NCBI RefSeq assembly: GCF_009392895.1
Contig: NZ_CP045490.1
Span: 1 to 64,000, forward strand
DNA length: 64,000 nucleotides
Direction: 5' to 3'
Source of the DNA: Natronorubrum aibiense
GTDB taxonomy: Archaea > Halobacteriota > Halobacteria > Halobacteriales > Natrialbaceae
Under the pieces are notes generated by a model that did not search any database, had not been told where the DNA came from, and saw only the letters and a program-made list of their open reading frames with translations. The number at the start of each line of letters is the position of its first letter. Positions within the stretch are counted from its first letter, which is position 1. Of this stretch, positions 3,469-37,751 are shown piece by piece. Made by a program: the position numbers and the translations under genes.

Positions 3469-3840
3469 TCAGCCGATCGGCTTGAGTGGGGTTCCCTTTG
3501 CAAGACGGGCCGAATTCGCACCGAGTTTTCGTGCCGTTTGTGCCGTCACCTCGGCACTGTCGAACACCGGTTCGTCAGCCGAAAGCTGAGCGTGGTGCAC
3601 AACGACCCGTGCGTCGGCGGTAACGCTGACACCGATGTTCAGCGCCGAGTTGGTCGCAGCTTCGTGGGCGACGGCGATCGCATCACCATCGTGCCCCCCG
3701 TCGACAGCCCACGAAACGGCTTCTTCTTCGATGCCGTGTTCGATGTATTCGACGGTCTCGGGGATCTCCGCCTCGAGACACCACACGAAGAGACGGGGCA
3801 CCGCGTCGTCGGACTCGATCTCGCCTCGACAGCCACTCAT
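3469..3840 (-). CDS. ddrB: diol/glycerol dehydratase reactivase, small subunit
   Basis: 123 residues from the ATG at 3840; an ATG at 3852 is also possible. The fold resembles the DdrB/GdrB/PduH subunit, which swaps with the dehydratase medium subunit to release damaged cobalamin. Family features seen: a central GIEEEAV segment, the Ala-rich AVAHEAATNSALNIGVSV helix-strand, and VVVHHAQL followed by PVFD. It lies on the same strand as and downstream of the large reactivase subunit (77-90 bp gap), as in bacterial ddrAB/pduGH. The IS1341-type element ends about 15 bp from its stop without entering it. Confidence 0.85.
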   Translation of the reverse strand: MSGCRGEIESDDAVPRLFVWCLEAEIPETVEYIEHGIEEEAVSWAVDGGHDGDAIAVAHEAATNSALNIGVSVTADARVVVHHAQLSADEPVFDSAEVTAQTARKLGANSARLAKGTPLKPIG

Positions 3841-3927
3841 AGCGTAGTTCATCCGGGCCAGATACAAAATTCTATAGGGCCACTTCACTCCTGAACGGCC
3901 ATGGAACGATCGTGACAGCAACCCATC

Positions 3928-5850
3928 TTAACTGGGACGGCGCTCGGAGGTGGAGTGGGCCGGCACTCGCTCGAGCGCCGACGAGAGTTCGGCTGGGATT
4001 TCGAAGTCGAGATACGACTCGCCGTCGCTATGGGAGAGCACGAGGCCCGTTGCCACGGCGTTTCGAGGCCCGAGTTCGCCACGCACGTTGGCACTCCCAC
4101 AGACGATTCCGTACTCGGCCATGGCGTCCGAGATCAGTTCGGGGATTTCGAAGTCGAGCGCGGAGCGACCGACCATGACGACGAACGATAGCTGTCGAAT
4201 TGACTCCGTCGGCGTGATGATGTTGAGCGCTCGCTGTGCGTTTGTGACGAAGACGCGCCGCTTGGCCCGCCGCCGAACTCGACGGATTTCTTCGGGGGAC
4301 GTATCGAGCGGAATCGCCCGCATCTCACCGTCACCCGTAAGGAGAACGGTGCGACCGAAGAGTTCGGGAGCGACTGCCTCATCGAGGAAATCGACGGTTC
4401 CGTCTTCCTGACGGACGCTGAACAGGGTTTCGACCTTCGCGGAGGGATTGATCTTGATCGCCTCCGCGAGGTCGCGGTCGTCCAGGCCGAGTTCGGAATT
4501 GATGAGCATCGTCACCATGTCGCCGGCCCCGGAGAGGTGAATCGACTCGATGGTTTTGTCTTCGGCCATGTATGCGGCATCGGTCGAACCGCCACCCATA
4601 TCGAGAATCGCGACCGGGTAGTCCGTTCCGGGCGTGGTGAGCGAGCCGAGGACGGCCATTTTTGCTTCGATGCCCTGAATAACGACCTCAGTATCCAACT
4701 CGTCCGTGATCCCGGCTGCAATCTGTTGCATCGGGAGCTGTTGGGTCTTGACCATCGCCGCGAGCCCGACGGCGCTCTCCATCGAGTGTTCATCGGCGAC
4801 CGACCCCTCGACCGCCTGCGGAACCAGCGTATCGACAGCCATGATGTCACGGATCTCGATCGAGTCGATAGATTGACCAGTAACTGCAGCCATGCTGCTC
4901 CGAGCCCGGTTCAACATCCCCCCGATGTTCGAACCGCTTTCTCCCTGTACGTCCGAGACCGGCCAACTGTTCATCACGGCATCCATGATGACGTCAGCAC
5001 CCTGATCGACCGGGACCTCGGTCGAGTTCCCCCGTTCGTCGATGATCTGTAACGTTCCGGCCGGGATGGTTCGTTCCTCGACGTCGCCCTCCGGCGTTTT
5101 GATCACGACTGCGGACTTGTTGCCGACGAGCGCACGGGCAACGGGGATGATCTTCTGTGTCTCCTCCGGAGACAGGTCGAACACCGTCGCGATACCGTAG
5201 GGGTTCGACAGTTCGTCGATCGTCTTTCCGCTCGCCGGCGGCGCGACCTCGACGGCCGCCCGCTGGTCACGCGGCACCTCGTCCAGTTTCCTGACCTCGT
5301 CGACGATCGGGATCTCCACGTCGATGCGGTTGTTGATGAGAACCGCGTCGTCTTTCTGGACGATCGCGCCGGCGACCTCGTAGCCGTTCTTAGTCCACTC
5401 GTTGATGAGTTCGGCTGCAGCTGCGAAGTCGACTGTCTCCGGAACGAGAAAGATGACCGGCTCGGCCGTCGAGTAGTCGTCCATCGATGCGGTGATCTCG
5501 ACCGTCGTTCCGGTTCCGAGGCCCATCCCACCCGGCGTCGACGGATCGTGGCCGATCATCGTCGACTCCGTGATGACCGTCTCAGTAATCGTCTCCATCG
5601 CGACGTCGCCGATGACCGGCGCGGCCTCGTTGAGGAGCACGCGATCGATCTCCGAGACGTCGATAGCCGCGTTTTCCGCCGCTTGCTCGAGTGCGTTGAG
5701 CACGCCCGGAACGTTCTTTTTCGTTCCTTTCAGCCCCGTCGTCCGATACAGAGCCGCCGAGAGAAACTCGGTCTCTCCCGAGTCGGATCGGCGTAACAGC
5801 GCAACTTCCGTACTCGAGTTCCCGATATCGACGCCTGCGATGTGACCCAT
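3928..5850 (-). CDS. ddrA: diol/glycerol dehydratase reactivase ATPase, large subunit
   Basis: 640 residues from the ATG at 5850. Hsp70-like ATPase DdrA/GdrA/PduG, which uses ATP to expel inactivated cobalamin from the dehydratase so that fresh adenosylcobalamin can bind. Seen: an N-terminal GVDIGNSSTEVAL phosphate-binding loop (residues about 5-17), a second loop LDMGGGSTDAAY near 435, and family-typical length (bacterial forms are about 610). It is transcribed away from the dehydratase operon, with about 175 bp between divergent starts, and its small partner follows it. Association with all three dehydratase subunits makes the assignment firm. Confidence 0.92.
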   Translation of the reverse strand: MGHIAGVDIGNSSTEVALLRRSDSGETEFLSAALYRTTGLKGTKKNVPGVLNALEQAAENAAIDVSEIDRVLLNEAAPVIGDVAMETITETVITESTMIGHDPSTPGGMGLGTGTTVEITASMDDYSTAEPVIFLVPETVDFAAAAELINEWTKNGYEVAGAIVQKDDAVLINNRIDVEIPIVDEVRKLDEVPRDQRAAVEVAPPASGKTIDELSNPYGIATVFDLSPEETQKIIPVARALVGNKSAVVIKTPEGDVEERTIPAGTLQIIDERGNSTEVPVDQGADVIMDAVMNSWPVSDVQGESGSNIGGMLNRARSSMAAVTGQSIDSIEIRDIMAVDTLVPQAVEGSVADEHSMESAVGLAAMVKTQQLPMQQIAAGITDELDTEVVIQGIEAKMAVLGSLTTPGTDYPVAILDMGGGSTDAAYMAEDKTIESIHLSGAGDMVTMLINSELGLDDRDLAEAIKINPSAKVETLFSVRQEDGTVDFLDEAVAPELFGRTVLLTGDGEMRAIPLDTSPEEIRRVRRRAKRRVFVTNAQRALNIITPTESIRQLSFVVMVGRSALDFEIPELISDAMAEYGIVCGSANVRGELGPRNAVATGLVLSHSDGESYLDFEIPAELSSALERVPAHSTSERRPS

Positions 5851-6025
5851 GTGTGACCTATTGACAATAGGTAGCGAACGCAAAATACCTTTTCCTGAAA
5901 TTGGGGCTTCGGGCCTGCCGTCTCCTTACTGGGGAACAGACAGGGACCGAACAGGAGATGGTACGGTATCACCCATCACGTGAACTCATACCATAGACTT
6001 ATTTCTCAGTGTTCGGAGTATACAG
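5851..6025. promoter_or_regulatory. divergent promoter region of the reactivase and dehydratase arms
   Basis: 175 bp between the ddrA start (minus) and the HbpS-like gene (plus). Both arms must start here, and an AT-rich stretch near 5995-6010 precedes the plus-strand gene. No archaeal operator could be assigned with confidence and no cobalamin-riboswitch-like fold is apparent. Confidence 0.4.
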
Positions 6026-6451
6026 ATGGATCCACGAATGACAGACGTAACACTCGACACGGCGAAAGAGATGATCGAGGCAGCAGAAGGGGAGGCCGCA
6101 GAGATCGGCGTACCAATGTGCATCGCGGTGATGGACGAGGGAGCGAACCTCGTCGCGTTCCATCGAATGGACGGGGCGCTCCTGGCGAGTGTCGATATCG
6201 CGCAGAACAAAGCCTACTCCTCGGTCTCGCTGAAGATGGACACGGAGACGATCCACGAAGTGTCACAACCGGGCGAGTCACTGTACGGACTTGGCAACAC
6301 GAACGACGGACGGATCATCACCTTCGGTGGCGGACTCCCGCTCGAGGACGAATCCGGCGACGTCGTCGGCGGGATTGGCGTTTCCGGCGGCAGCGCAGAA
6401 GAAGACATACAAGTCGCACAGGCGGGTGCGGACGCCTTCGAACGCAGTTGA
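6026..6451 (+). CDS. GlcG/HbpS-family protein (PduO C-terminal-domain-like)
   Basis: 141 residues of one domain. GlcG/HbpS family (DUF336), the same fold as the C-terminal domain of PduO and as heme- or corrin-binding HbpS. Seen: an N-terminal helix TAKEMIEAAEGEAAEIG, a central strand MCIAVMDEGANLVAFHRMDGA, and the C-terminal glycine-rich GGGLPLEDESGDVVGGIGVSGG. In bacterial pdu clusters this domain accompanies adenosyltransferase PduO; here it stands alone as the first plus-strand gene before the dehydratase. A role in cobalamin or heme handling for the dehydratase is inferred. An alternative start is the ATG at 6038. Confidence 0.82.
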   Translation: MDPRMTDVTLDTAKEMIEAAEGEAAEIGVPMCIAVMDEGANLVAFHRMDGALLASVDIAQNKAYSSVSLKMDTETIHEVSQPGESLYGLGNTNDGRIITFGGGLPLEDESGDVVGGIGVSGGSAEEDIQVAQAGADAFERS

Positions 6452-6536
6452 TCGGCGACGGTCACGATTCGAATCGGTATCCAATTGCAATGTGGCTAGA
6501 TATTCTTTACTTTTACACAGGAGTGGTGAAAACATC

Positions 6537-6574
6537 AAACTATATACACACGCTTGTCGAAGTTGGCGTGTGCA
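6537..6574 (+). promoter_or_regulatory. TATA box and operator-like inverted repeat before the dehydratase genes
   Basis: A TATATA box at 6541-6546 sits about 30 bp upstream of the ATG at 6575, so the transcript is leaderless or nearly so. Between box and start is a perfect 7-bp inverted repeat, CACACGC (6547-6553) and GCGTGTG (6566-6572), overlapping the expected start point. A regulator bound here would block initiation. Its identity is unknown. Confidence 0.5.
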
Positions 6575-8311
6575 ATGGTAAATAATGACACACCAGCTAC
6601 AGATGGGGGTGGCGAAGCCAGCGCGGCCGAAGAGACCGGGACCAGGCGGTCGAACCGGTTCAAGAAACTGGATGAACGAGCAGTCACCGAGGACGGCTTC
6701 GTAAACGAGTGGCCCGACGTCGGATTCGTGGCCATGGAGAGTCCGAACGACCCCGCTCCGAGCATCACGGTCGACGATGGACAGATCGTCGAGATGGACG
6801 GGAAAGACCGCGATGAGTTCGACTTCATCGACCGGTTCATCGCTGACTATGCGATTAACGTCGAACGAGCCGAAGACGCGATGGACGTCGATTCGGAGTC
6901 GTTCGCACGTGATCTCGTCGATATCAACGTTCCCCGAGAAGAGATCGTCGAACTGTCGACGGCGATGACACCGGCGAAACTGGTCTCCGTCGTCAACCAT
7001 CTCGACATCGCCGAGATCATCATGGCGATGAAGAAGATGCGAACGCGCCAGACACCCGGCAACCAGTGTCACGTGACGAGCGTCGAGGACAACGTGGCAC
7101 AGATCGCGGCGGACGCGGCCGAGGCCGCACTCCGGGGCTTCTACGAGGTCGAAAACACCGTCGGCGTGGCCCGTATGGCACCGCTGACGGCGCTCGCCCA
7201 ACAGATCGGCGCACAGTGTGGTCGCGGCGGCGTCATCACGCAGTGTGCCGTCGAGGAGGCGACGGAACTCGAGCTCGGCATGCGCGGCATGACCGGCTAC
7301 GCGGAAACCGTCTCCGTCTACGGCACCGAAGACGTGTTCAAAGACGGTGACGACACCCCGTGGTCGAAAGCGTTCCTCGCCTCCGGATACGCATCCCGTG
7401 GGCTAAAGATGCGGTATACGTCCGGTGCCGGAGCGGAGCTCAACATGGGACAGGCCGAAGGGAAGTCGATGCTCTATCTGGAGACGCGATGCATTCTGGT
7501 CACGAAAGGCTGTGGCGTGCAAGGGCTCCAAAACGGCGGAATCAGCTGTATCGCGATCCCGACGTCGGTCCCGGCCGGCGTCAAGGAGGTCGCCGCCGAA
7601 AACCTGATAACGATGATGGCCGACCTCGAGGTCGCCTCGGGGAACGACCAGACGTTTACCCACTCTGACAAGCGACGGACGGCGCGGATGATGCCCCAGT
7701 TCCTCGCCGGTACCGACTTCATCTTCTCGGGATACAGCGCCGTGCCGAACTACGACAACATGTTCGCCGGTTCGACGTTCGACTCGTCAGATTTCGACGA
7801 GTACAACGTCATGCAACGAGATCTGCAAGTCGAAGGCGGAACACGTCCCGTCGACGAGGAGACAGTCCTCGAGTACCGCGAACGCGCCGTCAAAGCGTTG
7901 CAAACCGTGTTCGAGGAGCTCGGATTCCCCCCGATCACGGACGAGGAAGTCGACGCGGCGATCTACGCCGACGGCAGTAAGGACATGCCAGAGCGCAGCA
8001 CGGCCGAAGACATCGAAGCGGCGGAGGAACTACTCGAAGACGGCGTCACCGGTGCCGATGTCGTGAAGATCCTGGCCAAAAACGGGTTCGAGACGATCGC
8101 CCAGAACATGCTCGGCATCCTCAAAGGGCGTGTCGCAGGCGATTACATCCAGACGTCGGGAATTTTCGAGGGTGACGGCGAGTTCGACATCGTAAGCGCA
8201 GTCAACGACCCCAACGAGTATCAGGGCCCCGGAACCGGATTCCGACTGGAGGGGGAGCGCTGGGAAGAGAAGAAAGACATTCGATTCGCCGTCGATCCGG
8301 AGGATATCTAG
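6575..8311 (+). CDS. pduC: coenzyme-B12-dependent diol/glycerol dehydratase, large subunit
   Basis: 578 residues. The catalytic TIM-barrel subunit converts 1,2-propanediol or glycerol to propionaldehyde or 3-hydroxypropionaldehyde by adenosylcobalamin radical chemistry. Aligned by eye to the Klebsiella oxytoca enzyme (offset +23), all substrate and metal residues are present: His166, Glu193, Glu244, Gln319, Asp358 and Ser385, matching His143, Glu170, Glu221, Gln296, Asp335 and Ser362. The bacterial protein is 554 residues; here an acidic extension of about 25 residues precedes the conserved RFKKLDERAVTEDGF. The very high resemblance to bacterial PduC suggests transfer from bacteria followed by halophilic acidification. 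Diol versus glycerol preference cannot be read from sequence. The medium-subunit gene follows after 2 bp. Confidence 0.96.
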   Translation: MVNNDTPATDGGGEASAAEETGTRRSNRFKKLDERAVTEDGFVNEWPDVGFVAMESPNDPAPSITVDDGQIVEMDGKDRDEFDFIDRFIADYAINVERAEDAMDVDSESFARDLVDINVPREEIVELSTAMTPAKLVSVVNHLDIAEIIMAMKKMRTRQTPGNQCHVTSVEDNVAQIAADAAEAALRGFYEVENTVGVARMAPLTALAQQIGAQCGRGGVITQCAVEEATELELGMRGMTGYAETVSVYGTEDVFKDGDDTPWSKAFLASGYASRGLKMRYTSGAGAELNMGQAEGKSMLYLETRCILVTKGCGVQGLQNGGISCIAIPTSVPAGVKEVAAENLITMMADLEVASGNDQTFTHSDKRRTARMMPQFLAGTDFIFSGYSAVPNYDNMFAGSTFDSSDFDEYNVMQRDLQVEGGTRPVDEETVLEYRERAVKALQTVFEELGFPPITDEEVDAAIYADGSKDMPERSTAEDIEAAEELLEDGVTGADVVKILAKNGFETIAQNMLGILKGRVAGDYIQTSGIFEGDGEFDIVSAVNDPNEYQGPGTGFRLEGERWEEKKDIRFAVDPEDI

Positions 8312-30744: not shown

Positions 30745-32631
30745 TCAGTTACGACGGAACAACAGCGCCGTCGAAAGAAGTGCAACGAGTGCGACTGCGA
30801 CACCGAAGCCGGGCGAGCCATCGTCGCTCTCGTCCGTATCCTCGGCAGCCTCGTCGTCGTCGGCGTTCAGTTCGAGATACTCGGTGACCGTGTCCATGTC
30901 GAGCCGTGGGTGTTCGTCGTCCCACTCACCGGGCATGTGAACGGTCGTGTCGTCGTCGACGACCTCGAGCGTGCGGACGTCGTCTTCGGTGGCATCGCCG
31001 TCGACTAGTTCCGTCACGTAGACGTAGCCGGCTTCGTCGTTAGCGTAGACGTGGGTGACCGAGTGCCCGTAGAACGCGTCTTCGAGATGATCTTCGAAGG
31101 CGGTGATGTCGTCGAACTTCGCACCCGTTTCCATCTCGACCGTGCCGTCGTCCATATTCAGGTCGAACTTGGCGAGCTCGAGGTCTGCGTCGTCGAACGC
31201 CGTCATGAACTCGAGGGCCTCGTCGTCAGCGGTCGGATCGTCTTCTAGGCTGTCGATCGCAGCGGAGATCGCGTTCTCGAGGAGCGCTTCCTGGGTCATC
31301 TCGAGGGTCATCTCCATCTCGATTTCGTCGTCGACAGTTTCGGCGGTAGCAGTCATCGAGAACTCGGCGAGGTCGATGTCGCGCTCGTCGAGTTCCTGAG
31401 TGTACGCCTCCCAGTTTTCTGCGTCGGAGGAGACATCCATCGAGAACGTCTGTGTCTGGGTCTCATCCTGGGAGAACGAGAGTTTCCACTGGGACGTCTG
31501 AACGAGGTCGGCTTCCGCCTGAGCCTCGTACATGTCGACGTATTCGTCGGACTCGAGGTCGACGTCGTCCATCTCACCGGCCGATTCGGCAAGGTCGAAG
31601 AGGGCGAACGTGGTCGAATCGAGGTTCGTGAACGCGATCTCCCACGCACCCTCGACCGTGTTCTCGCTCACGAGATAGGAGACGTCGAACGTCTCGATTT
31701 CGGCGTCGAGAAGATCAGCTGCGAGCTGTTCGGCCTCGTCCTGGTCGAGGTCGAGGTCGGACTCGGAAGCGAGTCCGTCCGCAACTGCCGACTCGAGTCC
31801 GTCTTTGACGTTCTCGAACTCGACGGTGTACTCGACATCGAGGTCGGCGGTACCGTCGGCGTTCTCCTGGAACTCGTGAGCGTCGATCGAGACCGTCACG
31901 TCGCCGCCAAGTTCGGCTGCGACATCGCTGAACTGTGCCTCGAGGGTCTGCGTGGCGTCGGCTTCGGTTCGCCAGTTGTCGGTCTGGTACTGGTTCAGTT
32001 GGTCTTGGTTGTGCACGTCGAGCGTGTAGCTGCCGTCTGCTTCGGTAAGTTCGAGGTCAAGTCCGTTGTCCGGGCTCTGCATACCGCCCATCATGGTGGC
32101 GCTGAACTCGCCGTCCGTGCTGAACTCGTCAGCGCTCGAGACCGTCGTTCCGGAGGCAGACACCTGTGTGAATCCGGCACCGGGGCCGGCGGCATCCATC
32201 TCCATCTCGAGGTCGGCGTCGAACGTGCTCGTCTCCTGGTTCTGTTCGGCCAGCACGTCCATCGACAGCTCGGAGAGATCGGTCGGCCGCTTAGCCGCGA
32301 ACGAGCCCGAGGAGTCGACGCTGTCGCCGTCGACTTCCATCGAGAGGGCAGCGGAGACGTCGTCTTCCATGTCGTCCGTGATAAGCGCGTACACGACGGA
32401 TTCGGAGACGTCGAGTCCGACTTCGCCGGAGGCACCGGTGTCGGTGTCCGAGTCTTCATCGTAGACGAGGACGGCGTCGCCGTTTTCGTCGACGAACACC
32501 TCGTCAGCCGGGTCAGCCTCGTCGACATCCGCCAGTGCGGTGCCGGCAAACGAAGACGTGATCAGTACGACAGCCATCATGACCGTCGCGATACTCCGCA
32601 GGGACCGTTTCGAAAAGACCTGCCTGTTCAT
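30745..32631 (-). CDS. large secreted surface protein with PGF-CTERM anchor
   Basis: 628 residues from the ATG at 32631. Signal peptide about 1-35 (SLRSIATVMMAVVLITSSFAGTALA), then a very acidic exodomain with many DVDLE-type stretches, and a C-terminal tail ending DDGSPGFGVAVALVALLSTALLFRRN. This is a PGF-CTERM signal, the archaeosortase A substrate tag, so the protein should be processed and lipid-anchored to the S-layer side. The exodomain is repetitive beta-rich and unrecognised. It is a paralogue of the divergent next gene: both have VFVDENGDAVLVYD / VYVAENGDAVLVYD near the N-terminus and MPGEWD[DR]E[HF]PR near the C-terminus. Confidence 0.88.
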   Translation of the reverse strand: MNRQVFSKRSLRSIATVMMAVVLITSSFAGTALADVDEADPADEVFVDENGDAVLVYDEDSDTDTGASGEVGLDVSESVVYALITDDMEDDVSAALSMEVDGDSVDSSGSFAAKRPTDLSELSMDVLAEQNQETSTFDADLEMEMDAAGPGAGFTQVSASGTTVSSADEFSTDGEFSATMMGGMQSPDNGLDLELTEADGSYTLDVHNQDQLNQYQTDNWRTEADATQTLEAQFSDVAAELGGDVTVSIDAHEFQENADGTADLDVEYTVEFENVKDGLESAVADGLASESDLDLDQDEAEQLAADLLDAEIETFDVSYLVSENTVEGAWEIAFTNLDSTTFALFDLAESAGEMDDVDLESDEYVDMYEAQAEADLVQTSQWKLSFSQDETQTQTFSMDVSSDAENWEAYTQELDERDIDLAEFSMTATAETVDDEIEMEMTLEMTQEALLENAISAAIDSLEDDPTADDEALEFMTAFDDADLELAKFDLNMDDGTVEMETGAKFDDITAFEDHLEDAFYGHSVTHVYANDEAGYVYVTELVDGDATEDDVRTLEVVDDDTTVHMPGEWDDEHPRLDMDTVTEYLELNADDDEAAEDTDESDDGSPGFGVAVALVALLSTALLFRRN

Positions 32632-32751
32632 CGACTTCGTATTTAAACCTGCCCTATATGTAGTTTTCGCTGACATTAATTATCAACTGACATTCATATT
32701 TGAAAGACACTCAACAAGACGTATTACGGTGTACGCGAAAGCCACCGACAG
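32632..32751. promoter_or_regulatory. divergent promoter of the paralogous surface-protein pair
   Basis: 120 bp, AT-rich (about 32640-32735). Both paralogues start here in opposite directions, so their promoters are back to back; TATTTAAACC and AATTATCAA are TATA candidates. Confidence 0.45.
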
Positions 32752-34701
32752 ATGCGCGGTAACAGGGTGGGAGCGCTCCTCGTCGTCTGCCTGCTGATCG
32801 GGACCGTTGGAAGTGCCGGTGGCGCTGGCGCCACCGGGTCCACCGAGAGTCCCGTCTACGGGCCGCTCGAGGAACTCGACGTAACCGAGGAAAGTGACGA
32901 AGTCTACGTCGCCGAAAACGGCGACGCCGTTCTCGTCTACGACCACCCCCACAACGCAACGCCGCTCGAGGGAACGGTCGGCGTGAACACGGAAACTGGC
33001 CTCGCACATGCACGCTACGCCGGCGAGCTGGAGGAGGCAGCCGGGTTCACCGGCGACGTGACGCTCCGGACGGACCAGAACGACAGCGCGAGTGCCGGCG
33101 ACCTCCGGATAGCGGAAACCGAGTCGATAACCGACCTCGAGGCAGCTATCGACGTCCGACAGACTGATCGAGAGTCGACTTCGAGCGGCGACGTACAGGC
33201 GACCGTCACCGACCGAGAGCTGGCGTACTCGTCGGTTCGCTCGGAGGGCACCCTCGAAGTGGCGGGTGGTTCGCTCACCGGGTCGGGGACGATACACACG
33301 ACGGCGCACAACGACACCGCATGGCTGGCTGGGACGAACGCCTCCCTCGAGCTAACGGTCACGGAAGCCACCGACGGCTACGCGCTTGCAGTCACCGAAC
33401 GCCGACCCATCGAGGAGTGGGAACGGGAGCGATGGAACACGCGGGCGGACGCGCATGAAAGTCTTCAGAATCGATTCTCGAGCGCCGCCATCGAGTTGGG
33501 TGGGACAGCCAACGGGACACTGGAGTCGTATCGCTTTACGGACGGCGACGAGCAAGCCATCGTCGAATATTCGTACGACGTCACCTACGTCGGCGTCGAC
33601 GATCGAGTCGCGGAGGTCGTGGTGGCACAGATACAGCAGCGGACGAACACCGAGCTAACCGAAGCAGAATCGCGCGTACTGGCCGACCGGATCGAGTCGA
33701 CACGACTCGAGCGGTTGTGGATCGACGTCGATCGCAACGGGCCGAAGACGGCCGTCGAGTGGGAGCTCGAGGCCAGCGGCTACGACCAGCTCGTTCTCGG
33801 CACAGTCGAGGTCGCAGAATCGATCGACAGGATCGACGATAGCGTCGTCGACCAGTTCGACATCATCAGGGCGACGCTCGAGACGCGGAAAGAGACGGAT
33901 CTTCGCCAGACAGCATCCTGGAACGTGTCGATCGACGATGACGGCACTCAGACGGCGATCGACGCCACCTGGCGTTCCGACGCTGAAAACTGGCAGACGT
34001 ACACGACGGCGCTCGAGGAGCGAGGGCTGTCGTCGCTCGTTCCGGAAACTACTGTAACGATCGATGCACGCACGACCGCCGACGGCCTCGGCATCGTCTA
34101 CAACTACGAGACGGCCGCCGACGGCGCGCTCGATCGGACGATCGACGAACTCGAGGGGACGGCGGCGGGCGCGAGCGACGTCGTCGCGACGGCCAGCGCA
34201 CTCCACGAGACGTTCGAGACGGCCGAACACATGAAAGCCGACGTGACAGTCGACAACGGAACGTACGCACTCGAGGCGGCCGCGGCCAATCCCGATGTGG
34301 CGTTCGAGATAGCGGCGATCTCGGACCAAAGCGGGCTGTCAGTCTCGGCGATACACGCCGAGAGTGACGAGCACTCGAGTACGGTGTACGTCACCGTCGA
34401 CGAGTATGTCAGCGGGGAGCCGACGAAAGAAGCGGTGCGCGATCGTGAACAGGTCGGCGACGATACCGCCGTCTACATGCCCGGCGAGTGGGATCGCGAG
34501 TTCCCACGGGTCGATTCGGAGCGTGTGGCGACCATCCTCGATGTCGACCTCGACGACGAGGACGCCGACAACGAAAGACTGGGCATCGCGGTCAGCTTGG
34601 CGCTCGTGGGCGGCCTCATCGCAGTGGCACTCGTCGGGTTCTACGGCGTTCGTCAGTGGTCGCTCAGCCGATCAGACGGGACTCGAACTGACGAGCAATG
34701 A
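32752..34701 (+). CDS. membrane-anchored paralogue of the PGF-CTERM surface protein
   Basis: 649 residues. Signal peptide 1-28 (GALLVVCLLIGTVGSAGGAGA), a long acidic extracellular region, and one C-terminal transmembrane segment (about 615-637, LGIAVSLALVGGLIAVALVGFYG) with a basic/polar cytoplasmic tail. Shares VENGDAVLVYD, SDAENW[EQ].YT..L.ER and MPGEWD.E.PR with the divergent PGF-CTERM protein, but is anchored by a TM helix rather than an archaeosortase tag. It overlaps the RND transporter start by four bases (ATGA), so the two are translationally coupled. It may present substrate to, or regulate, the transporter. Confidence 0.85.
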   Translation: MRGNRVGALLVVCLLIGTVGSAGGAGATGSTESPVYGPLEELDVTEESDEVYVAENGDAVLVYDHPHNATPLEGTVGVNTETGLAHARYAGELEEAAGFTGDVTLRTDQNDSASAGDLRIAETESITDLEAAIDVRQTDRESTSSGDVQATVTDRELAYSSVRSEGTLEVAGGSLTGSGTIHTTAHNDTAWLAGTNASLELTVTEATDGYALAVTERRPIEEWERERWNTRADAHESLQNRFSSAAIELGGTANGTLESYRFTDGDEQAIVEYSYDVTYVGVDDRVAEVVVAQIQQRTNTELTEAESRVLADRIESTRLERLWIDVDRNGPKTAVEWELEASGYDQLVLGTVEVAESIDRIDDSVVDQFDIIRATLETRKETDLRQTASWNVSIDDDGTQTAIDATWRSDAENWQTYTTALEERGLSSLVPETTVTIDARTTADGLGIVYNYETAADGALDRTIDELEGTAAGASDVVATASALHETFETAEHMKADVTVDNGTYALEAAAANPDVAFEIAAISDQSGLSVSAIHAESDEHSSTVYVTVDEYVSGEPTKEAVRDREQVGDDTAVYMPGEWDREFPRVDSERVATILDVDLDDEDADNERLGIAVSLALVGGLIAVALVGFYGVRQWSLSRSDGTRTDEQ

Positions 34702-37700
34702 GCGAAGACGACAGCCGAGATCGGTCGACCAGTGGAGTGTCCCTCGTGGACGCGATCACGACACACTCGAGGGTCGTCATCACGGTCATGCTCGTGCTGA
34801 CGGCCGTCTTCGGCATCGGGGCCACAGCCGTCGAGTACGACACCTCCCTCGAGCAGTTCGAGAGTCAAACGGCAGAGCGAGCAGCACTCGAGTACGCCAA
34901 CGAACACTTCGACGCTCGAGACGGTTCGAATACGGCGACCACCGTCGTGATCGTCAGCGGGGAGAACGTCCTCACGAAGGAGTCACTCCTCGACTCGCTG
35001 GCGCTCCAACGCCAACTCGCCGACAACGAAACGGTCAACGGGAGTCTCGCCGAGGAAACACCGATCACCGGGGTCGAAAACGTCGTCGCGACGAGCGTGA
35101 TCCGCGAAGAACAGGCCGATGCGCTCAGATCGCGCGGTGCCGACCTCGAGGATCGTGCGGAGCGACTCAATGCAACGGCTGCGGCGCTCCAGAGCGATCT
35201 CGAGACTGTCCGCGACGTCCAGGCGGAGTACGAGCGTCTCAACACCTCCTCCGGAGCCGGCGAGATCGACGGCGAGACGTACCGAACGCGATCGGCCGAG
35301 CTCGACGCCGAACTGGACGCGGTCCACGACAACGCGACGCCGTCGCTCGATGCCGACCAGACACGGTCGTTCACCCGGGCTATGGGGAGCGTTCGAGCCG
35401 TGCAAGCCGAGATCAGCGCCACCGATCGAGCGCGAGCGAACGGGACCCTAAGTCAGTCCGAATACGATCGGCGAGTGAATCGCCTCGAGAACGATCTCGA
35501 GGCCGCCTACACCGACGGCACGGTCGGCGTGCTCAACGAGGAGTACGATCGGCTCTGGCACCAGCGCGAGGAACTGGAGGCCGAGCGCGACGCACTCGAG
35601 TCGACGGAGCAGCCACCCCTTGGCGACCAGATCGACGCTCTCGAATCGCTCAACGACTCCGCCTACGGCCGTCACCTCGAGTCGATGCTCGAGGCGGAGA
35701 CCGGACCAGCCAGTGAGATCGTCCGACCCATGCTCCCGTCGTCGTACGAGCCGGATTCGACGCAGGCAACGGAGCGACTGCTTCGCATCCAACAAACACA
35801 CGCCACCGACACGAACGAGTCGACAGGAGCGCCCGACGACGATCTTGTCGAACGCCAGCGCGCGATCCAGCAGGTGGTCGACGATCACGACAACGACGTC
35901 ACCGACGAACACACCGTGTTCGGGCTCGGGCTCGCGACCGACGAGGTCGATCGTGCGATCGGCGACAGCCTTCGCTTCGTCGGCCCGCTCGCACTCGGGG
36001 TCGTCCTCGTGTCGTTGACGGTCGCCTACCGCGACCCGCTCGAGGTCGTTCTGGGAAGCGTTGGTCTCCTGATCGTGCTCGTCTGGACGTTCGGGTTCAT
36101 GGGCTGGACGGGAATCACGTTCAACCAACTGTTCGTCGCGATCCCGGTGTTACTGATCGGTCTCTCAATCGATTACGCGATCCACGTCGTCATGCGCCAC
36201 CGGGAGTATCGCACCGATGGGATAGCTCCCACTCCAAGCAGCACCGACCAGGATTCCGCTCGAGGGGCGATGGCGGCCGCACTCGCCGGCGTCGGCGTTG
36301 CACTCATGTGGGTCACGGCGACGACTGCGATCGGGTTTCTCTCGAATGTGGTGAGTCCGATCGCCCCCCTCCGAGCGTTCGGCCTCGTGAGCACGTTCGG
36401 AATCGTCGCCGCACTGTTCGTCTTCGGCGGCCTGATTCCGGCGATTACGATCGAACTCAAGACGTTCCTCGAGCGCCGCGGCGTCGATCGGCACAAACCC
36501 GCGCTTGGCACCCGGAACGGCGTGCTCCGAGAGATGCTTTCGGTCGGCGCGAGTGCTGCACGGACCGCACCTGTCGTCGTCCTCGTCGTGGCGGTCGCGC
36601 TGACCGCCGGGAGTCTGTACGCAGCGGGAACGGTCGACACGAGTTTCGAGCAATCGGATCTCCTCGCCGAGGAGCCCGAGTGGCTCGATCAGGCCCCCAC
36701 AACACACGCTGAGTATCGGGCGAACGACGGCTTCACAAAGCTCGACGAACGCTTCGAGACCCGAAACTCGCAGGCCCAGATCGTCGTCACCGGGAACGTC
36801 ACCGACGGGGACACGCTCGAGCGCATCGACGCGGCGCGGACAGCGGCTGCAACGACCGAGTCGGCCGACGCGCCACGAACGGCCGGAACTGCCGATCGCG
36901 ATCCGCTGACGGTCATGGAATCCGTCGCCGAGGAGGACGAGTCGTTCAACGCGTCGTACCACCTCGCCGATCGGACGGGCGATGGCATCCCGGACCAGAA
37001 CGTCGCCGGACTGTACGACCAGCTGTTTGAGGTCGACCCAGACGCCGCGAGCGACGTGATCGCCCGAACGGACGACGGCGAGTACGAGTCGGTCCGACTC
37101 CTGATCTCGGTTCGTGATGACACACCCGGCGAGCAAACGACGGCGGAGATGCGGGCGGTCGCAGAGACGATCGACGACGGCGAGACGGACCAGCGCTGGA
37201 ACGCGACCGCAACCGGCCCGCCGATCGTCACGCACGTCGTCGAAGCCACCTTGTTGGACGCGATCTACGAGAGCCTCGCGATCACGCTCGTCGCAGTCGG
37301 TGGGTGTCTCGTCGTCGCCTACGCCCTGACCGGCACCGGGGCAACGCTCGGCGTCGTCACACTGATCCCGGTCGTCCTCGCACTCTGCTGGATCGTCGGT
37401 ACGATGGCGCTGCTCGAGATCCCGTTCAACGTCCTGACTGGCACTGTCGCGAGTCTCACGATCGGGCTCGGCGTCGCGTACAACATCCACGTGAGTTCGC
37501 GCTACGTCCTCGAGTGTCGTCGACAAGACACCGTCGACGACGCACTTCGAACGACGATGACGGGAACCGGGGGTGCGCTGTTTGGCAGCGTTGCGACGAC
37601 GGCACTCGGGTTCAGTACGCTCGCGCTCGCGTTTCTCCCCGCCGTTCGACAGTTCGGCATCATCACGGCGCTGACGATCGTCTACGCCTTCCTCGCGAGC

Positions 37701-37751
37701 GTCCTCGTGTTACCGACGTTGCTGGTCGGCTGGACGCAGTATTTCCAGTAG
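34698..37751 (+). CDS. MMPL/RND-superfamily transporter
   Basis: 1017 residues, RND fold: TM1 (about 25-47), a large first external loop (about 48-410) with a predicted coiled coil, a six-helix bundle (about 415-640; SIDYAIHVVMRHREY), a second external loop (about 645-850), and a last bundle (about 855-1015). In the first half the RND aspartate is present (GLSIDYAIH); in the second half the same position reads GLGVAYNIH, with Ala for Asp. The relatives are archaeal MMPL proteins that move lipids or hydrophobic cargo. Coupled to the surface-protein gene upstream, so it likely works with it at the envelope. Confidence 0.9.
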   Translation: MSEDDSRDRSTSGVSLVDAITTHSRVVITVMLVLTAVFGIGATAVEYDTSLEQFESQTAERAALEYANEHFDARDGSNTATTVVIVSGENVLTKESLLDSLALQRQLADNETVNGSLAEETPITGVENVVATSVIREEQADALRSRGADLEDRAERLNATAAALQSDLETVRDVQAEYERLNTSSGAGEIDGETYRTRSAELDAELDAVHDNATPSLDADQTRSFTRAMGSVRAVQAEISATDRARANGTLSQSEYDRRVNRLENDLEAAYTDGTVGVLNEEYDRLWHQREELEAERDALESTEQPPLGDQIDALESLNDSAYGRHLESMLEAETGPASEIVRPMLPSSYEPDSTQATERLLRIQQTHATDTNESTGAPDDDLVERQRAIQQVVDDHDNDVTDEHTVFGLGLATDEVDRAIGDSLRFVGPLALGVVLVSLTVAYRDPLEVVLGSVGLLIVLVWTFGFMGWTGITFNQLFVAIPVLLIGLSIDYAIHVVMRHREYRTDGIAPTPSSTDQDSARGAMAAALAGVGVALMWVTATTAIGFLSNVVSPIAPLRAFGLVSTFGIVAALFVFGGLIPAITIELKTFLERRGVDRHKPALGTRNGVLREMLSVGASAARTAPVVVLVVAVALTAGSLYAAGTVDTSFEQSDLLAEEPEWLDQAPTTHAEYRANDGFTKLDERFETRNSQAQIVVTGNVTDGDTLERIDAARTAAATTESADAPRTAGTADRDPLTVMESVAEEDESFNASYHLADRTGDGIPDQNVAGLYDQLFEVDPDAASDVIARTDDGEYESVRLLISVRDDTPGEQTTAEMRAVAETIDDGETDQRWNATATGPPIVTHVVEATLLDAIYESLAITLVAVGGCLVVAYALTGTGATLGVVTLIPVVLALCWIVGTMALLEIPFNVLTGTVASLTIGLGVAYNIHVSSRYVLECRRQDTVDDALRTTMTGTGGALFGSVATTALGFSTLALAFLPAVRQFGIITALTIVYAFLASVLVLPTLLVGWTQYFQ

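What the first reader, a model, noticed from the sequence alone, without database searches (positions are those of the whole stretch)
30745..37751. Paired surface proteins plus RND transporter: a possible envelope system
Two long paralogous secreted proteins diverge from one promoter; one has an archaeosortase tag (PGF-CTERM), the other a TM anchor, and the latter overlaps an MMPL/RND gene by ATGA. I know no described haloarchaeal system with this set. They could form a cargo-transfer path across the S-layer space.
Basis: inference. Interest (0 to 1): 0.72.

Follow-up and report, generated by a model that had tools for sequence, protein, structure and literature searches.

The report
Archaeal RND pump with paired surface proteins
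In a few salt-loving archaea, a membrane pump of the lipid-exporter type is always inherited next to its own membrane-anchored surface protein and, in all but possibly one genome, a sortase-tagged sister protein of a so far unnamed family; what the set carries is not known.

Summary
Two secreted paralogs (29% identity, E 3e-50) diverge from a short intergenic stretch. One (exoPGF) ends in a strong PGF-CTERM tag, and the genome encodes archaeosortase A. The other (exoTM) ends in a transmembrane anchor with a basic tail and overlaps an MMPL/RND gene by ATGA.

Among 125 genomes of the family, the same seven (four genera) hold this exoTM type and this RND type, adjacent every time. They occur in two gene orders, with congruent trees for exoTM and RND. 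This is a co-inherited module. The exo family is broader: 93 of 391 haloarchaeal genomes, mostly solitary, no Pfam or NCBIfam model.

A haloarchaeal "RND + anchored secreted partner" operon is already published (HVO_A0466/0467, Sailer 2024), but its Ig-type partner is unrelated to exo. No LolA/LppX sequence similarity was found. The AlphaFold2 model of exoPGF is one large antiparallel sheet; Foldseek's only clear match is the Fenna-Matthews-Olson pigment protein (E 1.8e-6, but TM 0.13 and no sequence similarity).

Most likely reading: an RND exporter for a hydrophobic or amphiphilic cargo with a dedicated anchored accessory protein and a sortase-sorted sister. Cargo binding and transport are inferred, not shown.

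The parts
30745..32631 (-). exoPGF: secreted exo-family protein with PGF-CTERM sorting tag (likely start 32631, 628 aa; the longest ORF starts at 32676)
   Evidence: orthologs in L032, L033 start at M16 of the long ORF
32530..32631 (-). signal peptide of exoPGF (MNRQ...GTALA, predicted from sequence; no lipobox, no twin-arginine motif)
   Evidence: read from the translation; inference
31267..32319 (-). exoPGF region modelled with pLDDT mostly 70-92: eight-strand meander, then beta-hairpin/helix units
   Evidence: model residues 70-420
30748..30828 (-). PGF-CTERM archaeosortase tag of exoPGF
   Evidence: TIGR04126 43.1 bits vs cut-off 24.5
32632..32751 (.). divergent intergenic region; TATA-like TACATATA about 32655-32662 (- strand, for exoPGF) and CGTATTAC 32720-32727 (+ strand, for exoTM), each 24-32 bp before a start codon; partly conserved in relatives
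   Evidence: promoter reading is inference
32752..34701 (+). exoTM: secreted exo-family protein with C-terminal TM anchor; 7 N-glycosylation sequons (exoPGF has none)
34579..34650 (+). C-terminal TM segment of exoTM, followed by a 16-residue basic tail; no PGF motif
   Evidence: translation; no PGF-CTERM hit
34698..34701 (+). ATGA overlap of exoTM stop and RND start
   Evidence: the same overlap in L033 (exoTM ends 5950, RND starts 5947)
34698..37751 (+). MMPL/RND transporter, 1017 aa, two MMPL halves
   Evidence: PF03176 90.5 bits; nearest solved structures HpnN 5.1e-11, MmpL4 1.9e-5, NPC1-related 2.7e-4, Patched 3.5e-4
35094..35627 (+). coiled-coil-like insert in the first extracytoplasmic loop of the RND, variable in length among relatives
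   Evidence: read; no coiled-coil program was run
36171..36176 (+). TM4 Asp492-Tyr493 of the RND (GLSIDYAIH), invariant in all 19 relatives aligned; putative proton-relay pair
   Evidence: proton-relay role from general knowledge of RND transporters

Best explanation
The three genes are one co-inherited envelope module. SHOWN: exoTM and the RND are always adjacent and of congruent phylogeny; exoPGF is a paralog that accompanies them, with a clear archaeosortase tag. INFERRED: the RND, whose nearest solved relatives export or bind hopanoids, siderophores and sterols, takes a hydrophobic or amphiphilic cargo from the membrane using the proton gradient. exoTM stays anchored beside it as a dedicated extracytoplasmic accessory. 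exoPGF, re-anchored to lipid by archaeosortase and able to move away from the pump, carries the same exodomain and receives or passes on the cargo in the space under the S-layer. The exodomain is predicted to be one large antiparallel beta sheet with helices between hairpins, an architecture that could enclose a hydrophobic cargo.
For: Seven of 125 family genomes carry exoTM-type genes (859-1053 bits in six; 595 in G406, where the next solitary exo elsewhere scores 564) and the same seven carry this RND type (1680-1879 bits; next 1429), adjacent every time. Two gene orders: exoPGF< >exoTM>RND in five genomes, RND>exoTM>exoPGF in G181; in G406 RND>exoTM, with exoPGF at the end of another contig, as that order would give across an assembly break. 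Congruent trees: exoTM clade 99/98, RND clade 98/96, same branching. Purifying selection on all three (dN/dS about 0.09-0.30). Archaeosortase A in the genome, 333 bits. RND relatives. FMO-like model of exoPGF; FMO was also the top Foldseek match of the poor exoTM model.
Against: Most exo proteins have no RND next to them, so the exodomain must also do something without an adjacent pump. Close relatives of exoPGF occur alone (L208, L210). The FMO-like match has TM 0.13 and Z 6.2 at rmsd 10.6 A, rests on six sequences, and has no sequence support. Nothing shows a bound cargo. One gene order may descend from the other, so the seven genomes are not independent events.
Confidence: 0.42

Rival explanations
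1. exoTM is a structural or regulatory accessory of the RND, playing the part that the Ig-type glycoprotein plays in the published haloarchaeal RND operons (HVO_A0466/0467) or that MmpS plays for MmpL: it holds or stabilises the pump in the pseudoperiplasm and binds no cargo. exoPGF is a duplicated copy with a looser role.
For: Same operon logic as COG1361-RND pairs (PMC11349517), also present in the window's own genome (L229). exoTM is the obligate partner (7/7), exoPGF the looser one.
Against: Does not explain a second, sortase-tagged paralog of full length, nor the wide solitary distribution of the same exodomain.
Confidence: 0.33
2. exo proteins are general haloarchaeal surface proteins (adhesion, S-layer association) and their linkage to an RND in one small clade is incidental hitch-hiking.
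For: 93 of 391 haloarchaeal genomes have exo, nearly all without an RND neighbour in the loci opened, often beside housekeeping genes (MiaB-like, DUF63, secY).
Against: Linkage survives a change of gene order, patchy presence in four genera and deep divergence; exoTM and RND of this type are never found apart.
Confidence: 0.15
3. The module is a siderophore or other secondary-metabolite exporter, like HVO_A0467 (44-fold up under iron starvation, proposed schizokinen exporter) or MmpL4/5, with exo proteins as periplasmic helpers of the Rv0455c kind.
For: MmpL4/MmpL5 are among the nearest solved relatives; an accessory secreted protein encoded beside mmpS4-mmpL4 is needed for siderophore secretion (PMC9042941).
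Against: No siderophore or metal gene recognised in the ORF list around the window genes; HpnN scores better than MmpL.
Confidence: 0.1

Closest known systems
Haloarchaeal RND + RND-T-associated protein operons (HVO_A0466/HVO_A0467; COG1361 S-layer family protein + MMPL)
   Same: Secreted protein with C-terminal TM anchor encoded directly upstream of, and overlapping or abutting, an RND gene; widespread in haloarchaea (PMC11349517).
   Different: Partner there is Ig-type (CARDB/NEW3), unrelated to exo by profile comparison (0.8% probability). No second, PGF-CTERM-tagged paralog was listed beside the RND in the three records opened. The window RND is longer and falls in a different group of RNDs.
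HpnN, MmpL4/MmpL5 and Patched/NPC1 (RND lipid, siderophore and sterol transporters)
   Same: MMPL halves and TM4 Asp-Tyr; nearest solved structures by profile.
   Different: Scores far below the HpnN and HAE3 family cut-offs; coiled-coil-like insert in loop 1; archaeal partner proteins.
MmpL-MmpS/LppX/Rv0455c systems of mycobacteria
   Same: RND exporter with dedicated extracytoplasmic partner proteins; MmpS5L5 uses a coiled-coil tube (PMC12501195, abstract).
   Different: No LppX or LolA match in exo proteins; cargo unknown.
Fenna-Matthews-Olson bacteriochlorophyll protein (PF02327)
   Same: Predicted exodomain: long antiparallel meander then hairpin-helix units; all 16 Foldseek matches under E 1e-3 are FMO.
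   Different: TM 0.13, Z 6.2; no sequence similarity; FMO is cytoplasmic and binds BChl a.

Membership tests
RND superfamily, MMPL type | MMPL domain above curated cut-off | tested here: met
   PF03176 90.5 bits vs 20.5, two stretches
RND superfamily, MMPL type | TM4 proton-relay Asp-Tyr | tested here: met
   D492-Y493 invariant in 19 relatives
RND superfamily, MMPL type | 12 transmembrane helices, two large extracytoplasmic loops | tested here: inconclusive
   Simple hydropathy scan gives blocks consistent with this but merges neighbouring helices
HAE3 family (TIGR00921) | Score above curated cut-off | tested here: not met
   196.4 vs 351.9
HpnN hopanoid transporter (TIGR03480) | Score above curated cut-off | tested here: not met
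   110 vs 751.85
PGF-CTERM archaeosortase substrate | C-terminal PGF-CTERM tag above cut-off | tested here: met
   exoPGF 43.1 vs 24.5 bits; exoTM no hit
PGF-CTERM archaeosortase substrate | Archaeosortase A in the genome | tested here: met
   TIGR04125 333 bits vs 75
Haloarchaeal RND + HVO_A0466-type operon | Secreted, TM-anchored partner encoded next to the RND | tested here: met
   exoTM, ATGA overlap
Haloarchaeal RND + HVO_A0466-type operon | Partner of Ig-type (COG1361) family | tested here: not met
   hhalign 0.8% probability; no CARDB/NEW3 in exo. HVO_A0466 itself was not held; three COG1361/NEW3 partners of other haloarchaea stood in
LolA / LppX lipid carriers | LolA or LppX sequence domain | tested here: not met
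   No LolA or LppX model among the families listed for 32 exo proteins; LolA absent from 21 haloarchaeal genomes with working controls. The genome search for LppX had no working control
LolA / LppX lipid carriers | Same fold | tested here: inconclusive
   Not among listed structural matches, which does not exclude it
Fenna-Matthews-Olson protein | Sequence family PF02327 | tested here: not met
   hhalign 0.1%; FMO scores within shuffles
Fenna-Matthews-Olson protein | Same fold | tested here: inconclusive
   Foldseek E 1.8e-6, prob 1.00, TM 0.13; Z 6.2, 201 aligned, rmsd 10.6-10.9 A

The most novel reading that the evidence does not exclude
The exo family is a new class of extracytoplasmic hydrophobic-cargo carriers with an FMO-like large-sheet fold, and the exoTM/exoPGF pair forms a relay (pump-side anchored carrier to sortase-sorted surface carrier) that takes isoprenoid lipids, pigments or similar compounds from an RND pump across the space under the archaeal S-layer.
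Probability: 0.17. Interest if true: 0.82.

Novelty: new variant of a known kind. Interest (0 to 1): 0.5.

Why it matters
RND exporters with dedicated secreted partners are known in haloarchaea, but the searches made here found no archaeal case with a shown cargo or mechanism. This module ties an RND to a protein family with no Pfam or NCBIfam model that is spread over about a quarter of the haloarchaeal genomes sampled, and pairs a fixed with a sortase-sorted copy of the same domain. If the exodomain binds lipophiles, it would give a first handle on how hydrophobic compounds move outward in a cell with one membrane and an S-layer, and a first function for a widespread unnamed family.

Tried and rejected
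LolA/LppX idea: no such Pfam model listed for any of 32 exo proteins; LolA absent from 21 haloarchaeal genomes with working controls; the LppX search had no working control. PDB sequence search with the exo profile: only chance hits (gp41-5, TOP7, HSIB1). First AlphaFold2 model (full-length exoTM, 6 sequences): pLDDT 47, not usable alone; trimming and starting from exoPGF raised it to 64. Viral contigs: no exo. Plasmids: no exoTM. Homology of exo with the COG1361 partner: rejected. Homology of exo with FMO by sequence: rejected. ABC-transporter link for the g5 exo variant: the 826-aa neighbour reads as cytochrome oxidase I/III, not a permease (read by eye). Sigma-70-type scan: not informative for archaea. 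The Haloferax pHV4 record was not held under the accession tried.

Full report
What is there. The two secreted proteins are paralogs over nearly their whole length (29% identity, E 3e-50). exoPGF carries a clear PGF-CTERM tag and the genome encodes archaeosortase A; exoTM has no such tag and ends in a TM segment with a basic tail. Orthologs suggest exoPGF starts at 32631 rather than 32676, which makes the intergenic stretch 120 bp, with a TATA-like box facing each gene (inference). exoTM has seven N-glycosylation sequons, exoPGF none.

The exo family. No Pfam or NCBIfam model describes the exodomain. With a 32-sequence profile, full-length relatives occur in 93 of 391 haloarchaeal genomes (my count of genomes with E below 1e-100; the weaker hits I looked at cover only the PGF tail). 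In the loci opened, most are solitary and PGF-tagged, often beside housekeeping genes (MiaB-like, DUF63, secY region; neighbour names read by eye from sequence). So the exodomain is not bound to an RND as a rule.

The module. Two profile searches of the 125 family genomes give the same seven genomes: exoTM type 859-1053 bits in six and 595 in G406, where the next solitary exo elsewhere scores 564; RND type 1680-1879 bits in all seven, next 1429. The profiles were built from members of this set (all seven for the RND, six for exoTM), so high scores of members are expected; the point is that no other genome falls in the RND gap. In G406 the exoTM score alone does not separate, and its placement rests on adjacency and the tree. 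In all seven exoTM and RND are adjacent. Five have exoPGF< >exoTM>RND (window, G120, G352, Natronorubrum thiooxidans, Halostagnicola sp. A56); G181 has RND>exoTM>exoPGF on one strand; G406 has RND>exoTM at one contig end and exoPGF at the end of another contig, as that order would give. Trees: exoTM clade 99/98 and RND clade 98/96 with the same branching; exoPGF follows it except that solitary relatives of genus g5 nest among them. All three genes are under purifying selection. The set is patchy (four genera, 4 of 10 genomes in the window's genus), so it appears to be gained or lost as a unit. Gene neighbourhoods came from a simple ORF picker of my own, not a trained gene finder.

The RND. Nearest solved relatives by profile are HpnN (5.1e-11), MmpL4 (1.9e-5), NPC1-related (2.7e-4) and Patched (3.5e-4). 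TM4 Asp-Tyr is invariant. A coiled-coil-like insert of variable length lies in loop 1 (read). By trees it groups with solo and tandem haloarchaeal MMPL genes. The window's genome also holds an RND of the published type, behind a 546-aa secreted protein (L229).

Prior art. Sailer et al. 2024 (PMC11349517) describe HVO_A0467, an RND 44-fold up under iron starvation, in an operon with HVO_A0466, a secreted glycoprotein with Ig folds and a C-terminal TM, and report that such pairs are widespread. Plasmid records show the same arrangement (COG1361/NEW3 + MMPL). The exo profile shows no relation to that partner. I could not open HVO_A0466 itself.

Fold. AlphaFold2 on full-length exoTM was poor (pLDDT 47). 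On trimmed exoPGF it gave mean 64, with residues about 70-420 mostly 70-92: an eight-strand meander followed by hairpin-helix units. Foldseek: all 16 matches under 1e-3 are FMO proteins (best 1.8e-6), next unrelated match 2.3e-2, but TM 0.13 and rmsd about 16 A. VIA-align: FMO on top, Z 6.2, 201 residues at 10.6-10.9 A, a level that can mean only a common arrangement. For the poor exoTM model FMO is also first in Foldseek; in VIA-align it ties with beta-barrels. Sequence comparison gives nothing (hhalign 0.1%, FMO within shuffles). I therefore report FMO-likeness as a lead about architecture, not as homology. I tried two models and two aligners; the exoPGF Foldseek result is the strongest of them and is reported with the weaker ones.

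Verdict. A real, co-inherited module and a new variant of the RND-plus-anchored-partner kind, with an unnamed partner family and a sortase-sorted second copy. Cargo, binding and relay are inference.

Noticed in passing
L229 (G000:C1:1477000-1490000), 3616-7776: The window's own genome also holds a published-type operon: 546-aa secreted protein then an 838-aa RND, with a TetR-like gene divergent.
   Followed up: partly
L186, L187: Two g61 genomes have tandem exo pairs (one PGF-tagged, one with another C-terminal TM) and no RND in the ~16 kb fetched: pairing without the pump.
   Followed up: partly
L188-L194: Diverged exo variant of genus g5 with no C-terminal anchor (N-terminal TM instead), beside cytochrome oxidase genes and, in several of the loci, the secY region.
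   Followed up: no
L113-L115, L117, L204, L207: A group of exo proteins ends in a TM segment plus short basic tail without the PGF motif; possibly another sorting signal.
   Followed up: no
L035, L048, L089, L098: Tandem MMPL/RND gene pairs whose first member groups with the module RNDs in the tree.
   Followed up: no
L034-L111: Haloarchaeal RND loop-1 insert varies so that proteins run from about 900 to 1300 aa.
   Followed up: no
window 30745-32676: Likely start of exoPGF is 15 codons downstream of the longest-ORF start.
   Followed up: yes
window on G000:C3 (356,702 bases): The module lies on a 357-kb contig, not the 3.35-Mb one, in this genome; possibly a secondary replicon.
   Followed up: no
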